From contig NC_014722.1 of NCBI RefSeq assembly GCF_000198775.1, positions 175,372-239,371 of the forward strand: a stretch of 64,000 nt of DNA, given 5' to 3'. Both the position numbers and the translations under genes were made by a program. A model generated the notes under the pieces. It had not been told where the DNA came from. It saw only the letters and a program-made list of their open reading frames with translations, and did no database searches. This stretch comes from Mycetohabitans rhizoxinica HKI 454 (GTDB lineage Bacteria > Pseudomonadota > Gammaproteobacteria > Burkholderiales > Burkholderiaceae). The stretch's first letter is position 1; every line of letters begins with the position of its first letter. Below are positions 57,829 to 64,000 of this stretch, in pieces.

Positions 57829-58860
57829 TCAATCGAGCGTCAGCACGATACGCCCGTCGACCTTACCTTCGCGCAGCTTGCCAAACACCAAATTGATGTT
57901 CTCCAGTCGTTCGTGGTGGATGTGCGCGTGCACCAGCCCCTGCGCCGCGAAATCGAGCGCTTCCTGCAGGTCGCGCCGCGTACCGACGATCGAGCCGCGT
58001 ACGGTGATGGCATTGAGCACCGTCGAAAAAATCGGCAGTGGAAAGTCGCCCGGCGGCAGACCATTAAGCGATACGGTGCCACCGCGTCGCACCATGCCGA
58101 GCGCCTGAGCGAACGCACTGCGTGACACCGCGGTAACCAGCACGCCGTGTACGCCGCCGATTTCTTTCTGAATGAACGCTGCTGGATCGGTGGCTGACGC
58201 GTCCACGACGAGTTTGGCGCCAAGCCGTTTTGCCAACTCCAGTTTGTCCGGCACAACATCAACCGCGACAACATGCAAACCCATCGCGTTCGCATATTGC
58301 ACAGCGACATGCCCTAATCCGCCGATGCCTGATATCGCCAGCCATTGGCCTGGACGCGTGTCGGTGACCCGTATGCCTTTGTAGACGGTGACGCCGGCAC
58401 ACAGAATAGGCGCGATCTCATCGAAGGCGACCTGGTCCGGGAGCCGACCGACATAATTCGGGTCAGCCAATACATATTCGGCATAGCCGCCATTGACCGA
58501 ATAACCGGTGTTTTGCTGCACGTGACACAGCGTTTCCCAGCCGCCCAGGCAATACTCGCAGTGTCCGCATGCGGTGTAGAGCCACGGTACGCCGACCCGG
58601 TCGCCTTCTTTGGCGATCTTGACCCCTTTTCCGACTGCGGCGACGTAGCCGACGCCCTCGTGGCCTGGGATAAATGGCAGCGTGGGCTTGACCGGCCAGT
58701 CGCCGTCGGCCGCATGCAGGTCAGTGTGGCAGACTCCGGACGCTTTGACATTGACCAGTATCTGAGCGGGACCCGGCGTCGGCACCGCGACTTCTTCAAT
58801 CCGCAGCGGCTCACCAAACGCATGCACGACCGCGGCCTTCATCGATTGCTTCATGGCCAC
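57829..58860 (-). CDS. adhP: Zinc-dependent alcohol dehydrogenase (AdhP-like)
   Basis: A 343-aa medium-chain dehydrogenase. The catalytic zinc site is '[14 protein letters not shown]' and 'PGHEGVG'. The structural zinc has four Cys in '[15 protein letters not shown]'. The NAD-binding loop is '[17 protein letters not shown]'. Length and sequence match AdhP-type propanol-preferring enzymes. Single gene. Confidence 0.95.
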
Positions 58861-59427: not shown

Positions 59428-62173
59428 ATGACTTCGTCCACATTTGCAAGCGCGGCCCGCAGCAGCGGGTTGCGCGCCCGGATCGCCACCGACCTATGGC
59501 ATGCCATTTGGCGTCACAGGGGGCGGGTGCTGGGCGCCGTATCATTGCTGCTGCTAGCCAAGGCGGCTGCGGTGGCGGTCCCGCTGCTGCTCAAGGATAT
59601 CGTCGATGCGCTGGGCAATGTCACGAGCCGGCCGGCCGCGATACCTATCTTGTTGCTGTTCGGCTATGCCGTGGTACGCTTCGCGTCGAATGCGTTGAGC
59701 GAGGTGCGCGACATGACGTTTGTGCAAGTCACGCAGCGCACTGTGGCCGACTATACCGCGCGCACGTTTGGTCACCTGCATCACCTGGGCGCGCGCTTTC
59801 ACTCGCAGCGTGAGACCGGCTCGGTGGTACGCGACCTGGAGAAGGGTACTGCCGGCATCGGTTACCTGCTGGGGGTTGCGGTCTTTACGATCGTGCCGAC
59901 GTTCATCGAAATCGCGTCGGTGCTCGCCATCGTGATCAGCAAGTATGGCGGCGGCTTCACGCTGATCATTTTCGCGACATTCGCCGTCTACGCGAGTTAT
60001 ACGGTGGTGTTCACGCAGCGCCGCATGCGGGTGCAGCGCCGCATGAACGCGTTGGAAGCCCAGGCCAATAGCCGTATCGTCGACAGCCTGCTGAACTACG
60101 ACACGGTCAAGTACTTTGCGCGCGAGGATTTCGAGCGCAAGCGGCTCGACCAGGTGATGCAGCAATGGCAAGAGGCGGGTATCGAGAACCAATATGCGCT
60201 GTCCACGCTGCATATCGGGCAGAGCGCGTGTATCGGCGCGGGCATCGCGGCGGTGATGTTGCTGGCTGGCCAGCACGTGGTAAGCGGCGCGATGACGGTC
60301 GGCGATCTGGTGCTAATCAACGCTTACATCATCCAAGTCAGCCTGCCGCTGAACACGCTGGGCTTTGTGTTCCGCGAGGCCAATGACGCGTTGACCAACG
60401 TGGAGCGGTTGTTTGCGCTACTGGATGCGCGCGACAAGGCAGGCGAGGACGGTGATGCGGCGGCGGCGCAGCCGCTCGTAGTGCGCGGTGGCGAAATCCG
60501 CTTCGAGCATGTCGACTTCAGCTACGAGCCCAGTCGCAGGATCTTGTGGGATGTCTCGTTCCGGATTGAGCCGGGCCAGACGGTGGCCGTCGTGGGAGGC
60601 AGTGGCTCGGGCAAGTCGACGTTGGCCCGGTTGTTATTTCGCCTGTATCAGCCCGATGCGGGATCGATCACGATCGACGGGCAGGACCTGCGGCTAGTCA
60701 CGCAGCGCAGTCTGCGGGCGGCCTTGGGCATCGTGCCGCAGGACACGATTCTATTCAACGATACGATCGCATACAACATCGGCTACGGTCGCGAAGACGC
60801 GACAAAGGCCGACATTATTGCCGCCGCGCGAGGCGCGCAATTGGACGAATTCATCGAGCGCCTGCCAGACGCCTACGACACGCGGGTCGGCGAGCGAGGC
60901 GTGCGCTTGTCCGGCGGCGAGCGCCAACGCGTGGCCATTGCACGCGCGCTGCTCAAACAACCGCCGATCGTGGTGTTCGACGAAGCGACGTCGGCGCTCG
61001 ATACCCGTTCGGAGCGGGCGATTCAGCAGGAACTGATGCGCGTGGCCGAGCACCGCACGAGCCTGATCATCGCGCACCGGCTCTCGACCGTGGTCGATGC
61101 CGATCGCATTCTGGTCATGGAACACGGGCGACTGGTCGAGCAGGGGACCCACACCAGCCTGCTGGAGAAGGGCGGGGTCTATGCACAGATGTGGGCGCTG
61201 CAGGCGCAGCAGCGCGAGTTGGAGCGCACCGAACAGCGGTTTGCGCTTTTGCCGATCAACGTCGGCGCGTTGGTCGACAACGTGCTGGACGCGTTGCAGG
61301 AGGTCGCGGTACGCCATCAGGCGAGCCTGTTCAAGCGCATCACCGACGACAACCTGATCGTCACTGGCGACGCGGCGACGCTGCGGCGCTTTATCTGGCA
61401 GTTGTGCCGCACCGGCATTGAAGCGGGCGGGGCAGGCAGCCGCATCGAGGTGAGCGTGGCCCGCCACGACAACGATGCACGCGTGTCGATCTGCACGCCG
61501 GATCTCGAGACACCGGAGTTGTTCATGGTTGGATCTGGAGTCACTCCAGGCCGTGCTCGAGGAGCAGCGTGGGTATATCTTGCGCAGCCGCGACGATGCC
61601 GGATCCACGATCCACATCACGTTGCCGCTGCGGGCCATCGCGGAGTTGCCCACCGCTGACGGCCTCGCGCCGCAACCATTGCAAGCGCTCGACACCGCGC
61701 GACTGGACGGCGTACGCGTGGCCTGTGTGGATGATCACGAGGAGGCGCGCGACGCGCTGTCCGCGCTGCTCACCCGTGCCGGGGCCCAGGTCGTGGCGTT
61801 CGGATCCGGCCAGGCGCTGCTGGACTACCTCGGACACACGCGGCGCGACAGCTGGCCGGCCGTGATGGTCTGCGACATCGACCTGGGCGAGGAAAACGGA
61901 TATTCGATGATGGCCCGCGTCAGGCGGCTCGAGGCGGCGCGCCCGGACGGCGCCGTGCATCGGATTGAGGCGATCGCGCTGTCCGGCTACTCAAGCGAGT
62001 ATGAACGGGCGCGTGCCGTCGAGGCCGGTTTTCGCGGCTATCTGACCAAGCCGGTCAAGGCGGTCGATTTGATTGCCGCACTTAGGGCATTAACCACTCA
62101 TTTAGGAGAGACTGATGAGCTTGACCACTCCCAGCACGCCAGAGAACCTATCCGCCCCGCGCCGCACCGGTAG
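59428..62173 (+). CDS. ATM1-type ABC exporter fused to a degenerate HATPase and a receiver domain (one frameshift)
   Basis: Residues 1-330 are a six-helix exporter domain like the ATM1/heavy-metal family (HSQRETGSVVRDLEKGTAGIGYLL; RIVDSLLNYDTVKYF). About 355-590 are the ATPase: Walker A GGSGSGKST, signature LSGGERQ, Walker B IVVFDEATSALD, and the H-loop. From about 608 follows a kinase-like ATPase domain whose N-box reads QLCRTGIEA and G1 box CTPDLE, so ATP binding is doubtful; there is no H-box. At 61,531 an extra G shifts the frame. Removing it gives VDLESLQAVLEEQRGYILRS, a linker and a receiver: VDDHEE, phospho-Asp in VCDIDLG (about 816), Ser in ALSGYSS and Lys in YLTKPVKA. The restored length is 914 aa. 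As written, the first frame ends at 61,659. Confidence 0.85.
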
Positions 62174-62642
62174 TCTGTATGCCGACCGTAGTGCGGCCAG
62201 CGCCGCGATCGAGATGCTGCTGCCAACGCTGTCGGCGGCGCTGCACAACACAGTCGTCGGCCAAAGCGGGTGTTTGCATATCGTCGTGATGGATCCGGCG
62301 CTCGGTCCTGGCGACGCGAGCTTCGAGGACGCGATCCTGTACGAGCATTCGATGCCTGATCCGGCGCAGTGGGACGCCGACTACCGCGCATATGCGCGAG
62401 CCAAGGCGCGGCTGTCGTGGGAGCACGGCATGGACAGCCAGCTTGTCCAGTCCAGCCAGCCGCACCGCTTACGCCGCGGTGACACGAACCTGTGGGGCAG
62501 TGTGGCTCAACACGGCATCGTGGTGGGCGTCTCGGGGGCCCAACCGTGGTTTGACGAGGCGTTGGCTGGATGTGTCGCGCATTGCCTGCGCGCTATTGCG
62601 CGGCACCGCGCTGAAGCGGCGGCGGGCACGTTGGCGCTGTGA
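62115..62642 (+). CDS. Conserved-looking protein of unknown function after the ABC-receiver gene
   Basis: A 175-aa protein with AGGAGA before its ATG; the start overlaps the receiver frame by 59 bp, which implies co-translation. Sequence blocks are 'AAIEMLLPTLSAALHNTVVGQSGCLHIVVMDPALGPGDASFEDAILYEHSMPDPAQWDADYRAYARAKARLSWEHGMD' and 'NLWGSVAQHGIVVGVSGAQPWFDEALAGCVAHCLRAIARHR'. The 'GIVVGVSGAQPWFDEALAGCVAHC' stretch faintly recalls GlcG/HbpS haem-binding proteins, but I cannot assign a family. It may be the sensor or regulator of the exporter. Confidence 0.78.
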   Translation: MSLTTPSTPENLSAPRRTGSLYADRSAASAAIEMLLPTLSAALHNTVVGQSGCLHIVVMDPALGPGDASFEDAILYEHSMPDPAQWDADYRAYARAKARLSWEHGMDSQLVQSSQPHRLRRGDTNLWGSVAQHGIVVGVSGAQPWFDEALAGCVAHCLRAIARHRAEAAAGTLAL

Positions 62643-62868: not shown

Positions 62869-63618
62869 GTGGCACAGACTGCAGACCTATCGAACCCGAT
62901 TCTAACTGGCAAGACAGCGTTAATCACCGGAGGCGCCCGTGGCCTCGGTGCGGCGATATGCGACGAGTTGGCACGCGCCGGCATGAACATCGTCGTGGCC
63001 GATCTTCATGAGGAGCAGGCGCGTGAAACCGCGGCTGAGTTGGGCCGGCACGGCGTCAAAGTCGTATGGCAACGGATTGACGTCAGCGACGAGGCCTCGG
63101 TGCAACAGGCCATGCACACGATACACGAGTCGGTGGGCGAGCTCGATGTGGTCGTGAACAACGCGGCGATTGATGTGACGGCCGCGATCGAGGAAGTGGA
63201 GGTCGCCGCGTGGCAGCGCGTGCTGATGACGAACCTGTTCGGCCCCTATCTAATATGCCGGGCGGTCGTGCCGATGATGAAGGCCCGAGGCGACGGCCAT
63301 ATCGTCAACATCGCATCGACCGCTTCAAAACGCGCATGGCCGAACGCCTCCGCGTACCACGCGACGAAGTGGGGGCTGCTGGGCTTCTCGCATGCGCTGC
63401 ATGCGGAGCTGCGTCCAGCCGGGGTCCGTGTGTCGTCCATTGTGGCTGGCGGCATGCGCACACCGTTCTTGCTGGACCGATTCCCCGATATCGACGTCGA
63501 CACGCTGCAGCCACCCCAAAACGTGGCCGCGGCGGTACGGTTCGTGTTGACGCAGCCGCCCGGCACGGTGATCCCTGAAGTCATGGTGCTGCCAATGAAG
63601 GAAACGTCATGGCCGTAA
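62869..63618 (+). CDS. Short-chain dehydrogenase/reductase
   Basis: A 249-aa classical SDR with a GTG start after GGAGC. The cofactor site is TGGARGLG with Asp in 'VVADLHEEQ' indicating NAD preference. 'VVNNAAID' and the Y-x3-K of 'ASAYHATKWGLLG' complete the active site. The C-terminus is short and basic. It overlaps the start of a GmhB-like gene by 10 bp, so the pair may act on a heptose or similar sugar; this is inference. Confidence 0.93.
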   Translation: MAQTADLSNPILTGKTALITGGARGLGAAICDELARAGMNIVVADLHEEQARETAAELGRHGVKVVWQRIDVSDEASVQQAMHTIHESVGELDVVVNNAAIDVTAAIEEVEVAAWQRVLMTNLFGPYLICRAVVPMMKARGDGHIVNIASTASKRAWPNASAYHATKWGLLGFSHALHAELRPAGVRVSSIVAGGMRTPFLLDRFPDIDVDTLQPPQNVAAAVRFVLTQPPGTVIPEVMVLPMKETSWP

Positions 63619-64000
63619 CAGGAGCCGGCCGCGGCGCGGTGCTGTTGGACAAGGACGGCACATTGCTAAAAAACGTGCCCTACAATGTCGACCCGGCGCG
63701 CATGGTGCTGGCGCCGGGCGCCGCACAAGCACTACGCCGGCTTGGTGCACTGGGCATGCCACTCGCGGTGGTGTCGAACCAGCCCGGTGTGGCGCTTGGC
63801 TGTTTTCCCGAGGTGGCGCTGTGCGCCGTACGTGAGCGGCTTTGTGCGCTGTTTCGCGAGCACGGTGCAGTGCTCGCCGGGTTCTTCTATTGCCCGCACC
63901 ATCCGAAGGGGGCGGTGGCGCACTACGCGATCGAATGCGATTGCCGTAAGCCGCGATCGGCGTTGCTGACGCAGGCCCTCGCGTTTCTGGACGCCACGCC
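63609..64000 (+). CDS. HAD-IIIA phosphatase, GmhB-like (partial, cut by window end)
   Basis: At least 130 residues: MAVTGAGRGAVLLDKDGTLLKNVPYNVDPARMVLAPGAAQALRRLGALGMPLAVVSNQPGVALG ... FFYCPHHPKGAVAHYAIECDCRKPRSALL. The DxDGT motif, SNQ motif and the Cys/His zinc loop (CPHHP...CDCRKP) identify the D,D-heptose 1,7-bisphosphate phosphatase (GmhB) subgroup. The start overlaps the SDR stop. The 3' end is beyond the window. Confidence 0.9.
   Translation, partial: MAVTGAGRGAVLLDKDGTLLKNVPYNVDPARMVLAPGAAQALRRLGALGMPLAVVSNQPGVALGCFPEVALCAVRERLCALFREHGAVLAGFFYCPHHPKGAVAHYAIECDCRKPRSALLTQALAFLDAT

What the first reader, a model, noticed from the sequence alone, without database searches (positions are those of the whole stretch)
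59428..62173. ABC exporter fused to a pseudo-kinase ATPase domain and a receiver domain
A single polypeptide would join an ATM1-like exporter, a histidine-kinase-type ATPase domain with lost N, G1 and G2 boxes, and a complete receiver with its acidic pair, phospho-Asp, Ser and Lys. This suggests transport gated or sensed by phosphorylation, or the exporter acting as a signalling input. I know of no described system of this architecture. The one-base insertion at 61,531 could be a recent inactivation, a sequencing error or a programmed +1 event.
Basis: partly seen in the sequence, partly recalled or inferred. Interest (0 to 1): 0.8.

Follow-up and report, generated by a model that had tools for sequence, protein, structure and literature searches.

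The report
ABC exporter with degenerate kinase-receiver tail
Many soil and plant-associated bacteria make a membrane pump that carries, on its inner end, a worn-down copy of a signalling kinase plus a working-looking signal-receiving switch, which suggests a pump that cells can turn up or down by phosphorylation; the copy in this genome is broken by a frame interruption.

Summary
Window 59428-62173 encodes an Atm1-related ABC exporter, a degenerate histidine-kinase ATPase domain and a complete receiver, interrupted near 61,531. Uninterrupted relatives exist: P0001-P0003 in Mycetohabitans, at least 95 of 398 Burkholderiaceae genomes, other Burkholderiales families, and named Bordetella, Achromobacter, Ralstonia, Roseateles and Solimonas.

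Of 100 non-redundant long members, none has a complete G1 or G2 box and no column between exporter end and N box has a widely shared histidine, but 98 keep the receiver's phospho-Asp and 87 the full receiver site. The tail sits on an Atm1 paralogue with a changed glutathione pocket (R210 to Q in 97, N269 to H in 96 of 100; 12 of 13 unfused Atm1-type genes keep R and N). The 62115-62642 neighbour has a DUF336/HbpS/EfgA fold; 64 of 70 genomes with it have an exporter hit within 11 kb.

Best reading: transport regulated through phosphorylation of the tail's receiver in trans. The effect on transport, the substrate, the donor and the partner's role are inferred. Ten literature searches showed no description.

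The parts
59428..61188 (+). Atm1-related ABC exporter half-transporter (aa 1-587)
   Evidence: Pfam ABC_membrane and ABC_tran; nearest solved structures are plant ATM3, bacterial Atm1 and ABCB7/6 (searched with the intact relative P0001); catalytic motifs intact in the window copy
61189..61530 (+). helix plus first half of the degenerate histidine-kinase-type ATPase domain, in the exporter frame
   Evidence: residues 600-705 of the window frame 100% identical to P0001 and P0002 over 93% of the stretch; dN/dS 0.094 against L035; relatives hit HATPase_c here
61525..61540 (+). place of the frame interruption; relatives are continuous here
   Evidence: ORF boundaries, sequence, intact relatives
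61532..61660 (+). second half of the ATPase-like domain, in the receiver frame, with the ATP lid (G2 region) missing
   Evidence: alignment of 100 members
61718..62083 (+). receiver domain with acidic pair, phospho-Asp, Ser and Lys
   Evidence: Response_reg E 1.3e-17; full receiver site in 87 of 100 members
62115..62642 (+). 175-aa partner of DUF336/HbpS/GlcG/EfgA fold, overlapping the end of the receiver frame
   Evidence: AlphaFold2 pLDDT 80; the twelve best PDB chains come from five entries of this kind; PF03928 E 9.6e-4 in a relative, below cut-off; exporter hit near it in 64 of 70 genomes
62869..63618 (+). short-chain dehydrogenase, first gene of a glycan-type cluster that runs out of the window
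   Evidence: adh_short E 8e-57
63609..64000 (+). HAD-type phosphatase (start; continues outside the window)
   Evidence: Hydrolase_like E 9e-17 on the full gene in L080

Best explanation
The locus belongs to a family of regulated exporters. An Atm1-related ABC half-transporter (a paralogue with an altered substrate pocket) gained, probably once, the back end of a hybrid histidine kinase: the ATPase domain and the receiver, without the phospho-acceptor histidine domain. The ATPase part then lost its ATP lid and became a structural adaptor (pseudokinase), while the receiver stayed chemically competent. In the dimeric exporter two such receivers would hang beneath the nucleotide-binding domains; phosphorylation in trans, by a hybrid kinase of the cell or by a small donor such as acetyl phosphate, would change how the tails pair and so raise or lower the ATPase and transport cycle. 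The DUF336 partner, where present, would bind a small reactive molecule (tetrapyrrole, aldehyde or the like) and act on the tail or hand over substrate. Shown here: architecture, conservation, motif loss and retention, pocket change, linkage of the partner. Inferred: phosphorylation, its effect on transport, dimer arrangement, partner's ligand, place in the cell and contact, substrate. In this genome the tail is cut off by the frame break, so at most an exporter with a truncated tail would be made.
For: Tail half found whole in a frame of at least 850 aa in at least 95 of 398 Burkholderiaceae genomes; the exporter itself was confirmed in the loci fetched (22 full-length relatives, 8, among them 4 from other Burkholderiales families); named Bordetella, Achromobacter, Pollutimonas, Pigmentiphaga, Ralstonia, Roseateles and Solimonas proteins carry exporter and receiver domains. 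Of 100 members non-redundant at 85%: phospho-Asp 98, acidic pair 96 and 92, T/S 94, Lys 95, all together 87; complete DxGxG 0, G2 0, N-box Asn 32; three ordinary hybrid kinases used as control show both G boxes. Low dN/dS on all three parts in two species pairs. Exporter tree: 102 tail-bearing or tail-derived sequences form one group, weakly supported (0.66), with an unfused Q/H-pocket exporter as sister (0.97). Partner with an exporter hit on the same contig within 11 kb in 64 of 70 genomes carrying it, 43 within 300 bp. Complete PAS-HisKA-HATPase-receiver kinases and sigma-54 response regulators lie in the same cluster in G017 and G116, and hybrid kinases exist in the window genome.
Against: One genus (g10) has members without the receiver (L053-L055) and one without the whole tail (L075) that keep exporter and partner, so the tail is not indispensable. 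The partner outlives the exporter: it is intact beside broken exporters in three Mycetohabitans genomes and beside small exporter or receiver remnants in L073, L074 and L076. 47 of 95 fused genomes have no partner hit at E<=1e-8. 13 of the 100 members have an incomplete receiver site, and the 860-aa floor of that set dropped nine shorter proteins, two of them (P0237, P0239) without a listed receiver. No cognate kinase was found next to the gene across genera (only a few loci were looked at). The AlphaFold2 model is modest (pLDDT 75, pTM 0.54), so nothing can be said about how the domains sit against each other. No experiment on any member was found.
Confidence: 0.5

Rival explanations
1. The tail is a docking platform only: the ATPase-like and receiver domains bind the DUF336 partner or other proteins, and phosphorylation plays no role.
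For: Domain is degenerate for ATP; partner is linked; 13 of 100 members have an incomplete receiver site.
Against: 87 of 100 members keep the whole receiver site, more than a mere dock needs; about half of the fused genomes lack the partner.
Confidence: 0.22
2. The receiver is a phosphate sink: the exporter protein drains phosphoryl groups from a hybrid kinase pathway, and the exporter is the sensory input that sets how well it does so.
For: The C-terminal piece resembles those of hybrid kinases; a hybrid kinase and sigma-54 regulator lie in the same cluster in G017 and G116.
Against: No acceptor domain found and no output domain; in the window genome neither the receiver scan nor the search with the G017 kinase shows another such gene within 20 kb after the exporter.
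Confidence: 0.13
3. The ATPase-like domain still binds a nucleotide in members with N-box Asn and G1 Asp and works as a nucleotide sensor for the exporter; the Mycetohabitans/Burkholderia copies are late relics.
For: 22 of 100 members keep both the N-box Asn and the G1 Asp; PF02518 is listed for many.
Against: None of the 100 has a complete G1 or a G2 box, and the lid segment is missing or replaced.
Confidence: 0.1
4. Here the locus is simply a pseudogene in a shrinking symbiont genome, without a role in this strain.
For: Frame break here; internal deletion in Mycetohabitans sp. B8; remnant in G006; remnants also beside the partner in three g11 genomes.
Against: Catalytic motifs intact upstream and low dN/dS; near-identical intact copy P0002; a base-calling error is possible.
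Confidence: 0.5
5. The break is a programmed frameshift.
For: Both frames are open and conserved.
Against: Relatives are in one frame through the same place.
Confidence: 0.02

Closest known systems
Atm1/ABCB7/ABCB6 exporters (bacterial Atm1 of Novosphingobium, plant ATM3, PexA of Rhodobacter)
   Same: Sequence of P0001 over residues 4-596 (E 9e-154 and 7e-149 for the two best) and predicted fold (top Foldseek matches, TM about 0.45 by query and 0.69 by target with rmsd 13-17 A, so domains agree but the overall pose does not); Y195, R206, Q272 and R323 kept in 100 of 100.
   Different: R210 is Q in 97 and N269 is H in 96 of 100, while 12 of 13 unfused Atm1-type genes looked at keep R and N, the exception being L086; carries a ~320-residue tail that the listed solved members lack.
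Hybrid histidine kinases (TorS-, NahK-type)
   Same: ATPase fold followed by a receiver; the best NCBIfam hits of the C-terminal piece are such kinases, far below their cut-offs (44 bits against 676).
   Different: No phospho-acceptor domain found, no complete ATP boxes; an exporter stands where sensor and acceptor would be.
SLC5/STAC sensor kinases (CbrA, CrbS) and the ammonium sensor Ks-Amt5
   Same: Membrane transporter fused to two-component parts (CbrA: PMC7096432 abstract; CrbS: abstract start in a listing; Ks-Amt5: PMC5764959 abstract).
   Different: CbrA and Ks-Amt5 have active kinases that signal outwards and are not ATP-driven exporters; here an ABC exporter carries a degenerate kinase and a receiver, so signal flow would be inward.
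HbpS-SenS-SenR of Streptomyces and EfgA of Methylobacterium
   Same: DUF336-type protein; HbpS senses heme and starts a signalling cascade through a two-component system, EfgA senses formaldehyde (PMC8153426 passages).
   Different: The partner here has no signal peptide that I could see by eye and is linked to an exporter tail rather than to an active kinase; its ligand is unknown.

Membership tests
Atm1/ABCB7 exporters | ABCB half-transporter with Walker A, signature, Walker B, H-loop | tested here: met
   Walker A identical in 98, signature LSGGE[RK]QR in 98, AHRLST in 92 of 100, the rest near variants; all four present in the window
Atm1/ABCB7 exporters | Glutathione-pocket residues R206 and R323 (plus Y195, Q272) | tested here: met
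   100 of 100; numbering mapped by hand through the alignment. Y195 and Q272 as pocket residues are recalled; the three Arg and the Asn correspond to those named for PexA in PMC6424863 (passages) with an offset of 6 that I infer
Atm1/ABCB7 exporters | Glutathione-pocket residues R210 and N269 | tested here: not met
   Q in 97, H in 96 of 100, Q and H in the window. Hence filed as an Atm1-related paralogue, not as a canonical Atm1
Atm1/ABCB7 exporters | Export of GSSG or glutathione adducts | not testable with these tools
   Needs transport assays
Hybrid histidine kinase | Phospho-acceptor (DHp/HisKA) domain with histidine | tested here: not met
   No HisKA hit in the full proteins or tails scanned and none in the precomputed lists of the fused proteins shown; no histidine column shared by 20 or more of 100 members between exporter end and N box
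Hybrid histidine kinase | N, G1 and G2 ATP boxes | tested here: not met
   Complete DxGxG 0 of 100, G2 0 of 100, N-box Asn 32 of 100; three controls show both G boxes
Hybrid histidine kinase | Receiver with full active site | tested here: met
   Window copy complete; 87 of 100 members complete
Transporter-sensor kinase fusions (SLC5/STAC, Amt-HK) | Active kinase that signals to a response regulator | tested here: not met
   Boxes and acceptor absent; activity itself not assayed
DUF336/HbpS-like (62115-62642 product) | DUF336 fold | tested here: met
   Foldseek E 9e-4 to 2e-2, probability 0.99-1.00, to twelve chains of 9jth, 6bws, 2a2l, 4nkp and 5cx7; 2a2l is titled DUF336, EfgA and PduO are called DUF336 in PMC8153426, NahX and 4nkp are assigned by recall; model pLDDT 80. 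Only the first match is below E 0.001
DUF336/HbpS-like (62115-62642 product) | Pfam PF03928 above its cut-off | tested here: not met
   Best 19.6 bits against a cut-off of 25, in L048; none in the window copy
DUF336/HbpS-like (62115-62642 product) | Binding of heme, cobalamin or formaldehyde | not testable with these tools
   Needs binding assays

The most novel reading that the evidence does not exclude
A three-part stress-export system: a cytoplasmic DUF336 sensor and a phosphorylatable receiver on a pseudokinase adaptor jointly gate an Atm1-type exporter whose glutathione pocket has been retuned (Arg/Asn to Gln/His) for another cargo, such as a tetrapyrrole, metal-thiol or aldehyde-thiol adduct. 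It would be an ABC exporter under direct two-component control, i.e. post-translational control of transport by a phospho-receiver rather than control of its gene.
Probability: 0.2. Interest if true: 0.82.

Novelty: new variant of a known kind. Interest (0 to 1): 0.62.

Why it matters
Two-component receivers are usually read as switches for transcription, enzymes or chemotaxis. A family of ATP-driven exporters with its own built-in receiver would be a clear case where phosphorylation could set the speed of a transporter directly, and it is conserved, so it can be tested in harmless relatives. It is also an evolutionary series: unfused exporter with the changed pocket, gain of a kinase tail, loss of the ATP boxes, and in one genus members that have lost the receiver or the whole tail.

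Tried and rejected
Chance fusion of open frames: rejected by conservation and dN/dS. Programmed frameshift: disfavoured. Domain search of the window copy alone for HATPase_c: no hit; only relatives and the model show the fold. Neighbour clustering by all-against-all BLAST was swamped by shadow ORFs in G+C-rich DNA and was not used. Foldseek with the full model showed only ABC transporters among the 50 rows listed, so the ATPase-like domain was not matched to a solved structure.

Counting: the order search (48 of 399 genomes at E<=1e-20) mostly returned matches from about position 118 on, which I take for ordinary hybrid kinases; besides the split window copy, 6 genomes have matches from position 1 to 295 or beyond, 4 of them outside the family.

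Literature: ten searches, of which some aimed at prior descriptions; two searches returned nothing; none of the listings showed an exporter with this tail. PMC6315756 (passages) only lists an ATM1-type exporter.
Full report
What is there. The window is G000:C2:175372-239371 of a 3,750,138-base genome in three contigs; contig C2 is 2,755,309 bases. Those sizes agree with Mycetohabitans rhizoxinica HKI 454 as I recall them, and the nearest named proteins and record are Mycetohabitans; the tools did not name the genome. ORF 59428-61659 encodes an ABC exporter, ORF 61475-62173 in another frame a receiver. No frame change is needed in relatives: P0001 (Mycetohabitans sp. B46, 914 aa), P0002 (914 aa, source not shown; 3 differences in the first 700 residues and 4 in the last 213 against the two window pieces) and P0003 (895 aa, 'Burkholderia sp. 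b13') are continuous, as is G007.

Conservation of the fusion. A search with the linker and receiver half of the G017 protein gave 137 proteins at E<=1e-5, 120 listed; nearly all of the listed ones carry ABC_membrane, ABC_tran and Response_reg together at about 860-1000 aa, mainly from Burkholderia species. In 398 Burkholderiaceae genomes, 129 match at E<=1e-25, of which at least 95 have the whole half in a frame of at least 850 aa; the exporter domain was confirmed only in the loci fetched. In 399 Burkholderiales genomes, matches from position 1 to 295 or beyond occur in 6 genomes besides the split window copy, 4 of them outside the family. A second protein search from the Bordetella-type member L060 gave 213 proteins at E<=1e-10, 120 listed, with names that include Bordetella, Achromobacter, Pollutimonas, Pigmentiphaga, Parapusillimonas, Ralstonia, Roseateles, Rhodocyclales and Solimonas.

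The tail. The set of 100 members non-redundant at 85% comes from 252 sequences: 222 of the 240 proteins returned plus 30 from fetched loci. Left out were P0111 of a listed agent, eight partial or non-fused hits, and nine proteins under 860 aa, two of which (P0237, P0239) have no receiver listed; the set therefore leans towards full-length members. In it the ATPase-like part lacks a complete DxGxG and a G2 box in all 100; the N-box Asn is kept in 32, the G1 Asp in 67, both in 22. Three ordinary hybrid kinases, tested with the same patterns, show both G boxes. No histidine column shared by 20 or more members lies between the exporter end and the N box, and no HisKA domain is found in the members scanned. 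The receiver is mostly intact: acidic residues 96 and 92, phospho-Asp 98, T/S 94, Lys 95, all together 87 of 100. Pfam HATPase_c matches the first half of this region in 6 of 7 tails submitted, all below the cut-off. The AlphaFold2 model of P0001 (pLDDT 75, pTM 0.54) has the strand and helix order of a histidine-kinase ATPase fold without lid at 608-734 and of a receiver at 763-900. dN/dS between the window and L035 is 0.075 for the exporter, 0.094 for the first part of the ATPase-like domain, 0.32 for the 170 codons that hold the receiver, 0.146 for the partner; between L033 and L040 it is 0.20, 0.30 and 0.26 for the three parts.

The exporter. By sequence and predicted fold it is closest to the Atm1 family (with P0001). 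Of the glutathione-pocket positions, R206 and R323 are kept in 100 of 100, but R210 is Q in 97 (E in 3) and N269 is H in 96 (N in 4) (the positions correspond to those named for PexA in passages of PMC6424863). The unfused Atm1 paralogue of the window genome (48% identical) and 11 of 12 unfused exporters fetched from other genomes keep R and N; the twelfth, L086, has Q and H. In a tree of exporter domains the 102 tail-bearing or tail-derived sequences (the 100 members, the window exporter and L075) group together with weak support (0.66; 0.83 in an earlier tree with fewer outgroups), and L086 is their sister (0.97). L075, a 634-aa tail-less exporter beside a partner gene, is nested next to L053 (support 1.0). 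So the pocket change probably came before the tail, the tail was probably gained once, and in genus g10 the receiver (L053-L055) and in one genome the whole tail (L075) were lost. The sample of unfused relatives is small.

The partner. The 62115-62642 product has no Pfam hit above any cut-off. Its model (pLDDT 80) has as its twelve best PDB chains NahX, EfgA, OrfY, a Desulfovibrio heme-binding protein and PduO-C:heme, with E from 9e-4 to 2e-2; a relative in L048 hits PF03928 HbpS-like at 19.6 bits, under the cut-off of 25. Among 398 family genomes it is found in 70; in 64 of these an exporter or tail hit (intact, decayed or receiver-less) lies on the same contig within 11 kb, 43 within 300 bp. 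Of the other six, G219 has the tail-less exporter L075 directly beside it; L073, L074 and L076 (G117, G190, G397) have small remnants of receiver or exporter directly beside the partner (46-71% identical to P0001 over 24 to 66 residues); L077 (G373) shows none beside it; G409 was not fetched. The partner is absent at E<=1e-8 in 47 of the 95 fused genomes. In the first batch of loci it adjoins the exporter in 12 of 24, in the second in 1 of 8. So exporter and partner are an old pair, but each can persist without the other. Known DUF336 proteins sense heme (HbpS, which acts with a two-component system) or formaldehyde (EfgA) (passages of PMC8153426). I saw no signal peptide by eye.

Surroundings. 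Downstream in the window genome run a short-chain dehydrogenase, a HAD phosphatase, a family 9 glycosyltransferase, a carbamoyltransferase, further glycosyltransferases and a sugar epimerase. In G017 and G116 the same stretch also holds a complete PAS-HisKA-HATPase-receiver kinase and a sigma-54 response regulator, possible phosphate donors. In the window genome neither the receiver scan nor a search with the G017 kinase shows such a gene in the 20 kb after the exporter; hybrid kinases lie elsewhere. In G774, of another family, exporter and partner occur and I recognised no glycan gene among the neighbouring ORFs by eye.

Decay in Mycetohabitans. Of eight genomes of the genus examined, four of 1.1-1.2 Mb show neither gene.

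Mechanism. The best reading is an exporter whose activity is set by a receiver on a pseudokinase adaptor, phosphorylated in trans. Every step after 'the receiver is competent by sequence' is inferred. Precedents for transporters joined to two-component parts exist, CbrA (abstract) and Ks-Amt5 (abstract), but they carry active kinases and signal outwards. I found no description of this architecture; most subscription literature is not in the library.

Noticed in passing
window 62869-64000 and L080 1841-13202: A glycan-type cluster with SDR, HAD phosphatase, family 9 glycosyltransferase, carbamoyltransferase, several glycosyltransferases and a sugar epimerase follows the exporter and partner in the window genome, with similar genes (by eye) in G017, G116 and G112; product unknown.
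   Followed up: partly
L036 5947-6883, L037 5744-7211: In two other Mycetohabitans genomes the exporter is a remnant or internally deleted while the DUF336 partner gene stays intact, as in the window.
   Followed up: partly
L073 6241-6438, L074 4171-4366, L076 3928-4068, L077: Three genomes of group g11 (Burkholderia-like) keep an intact DUF336 gene with only a small exporter or receiver remnant beside it, and a fourth (L077) shows no remnant; a short-chain dehydrogenase was recognised by eye beside the partner in L073, L076 and L077.
   Followed up: partly
L086 (G535:C29): An unfused exporter with the changed Q/H pocket stands next to the fused clade in the tree, in a genome that also has a canonical Atm1 (L096).
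   Followed up: partly
L045 (G186:C1:821000-831000): One member has a long low-complexity Asn/Gly-rich insertion inside the receiver domain.
   Followed up: no
window 57829-58860, minus strand: Zinc-type alcohol dehydrogenase (name recalled from its sequence) just upstream of the exporter on the other strand.
   Followed up: no
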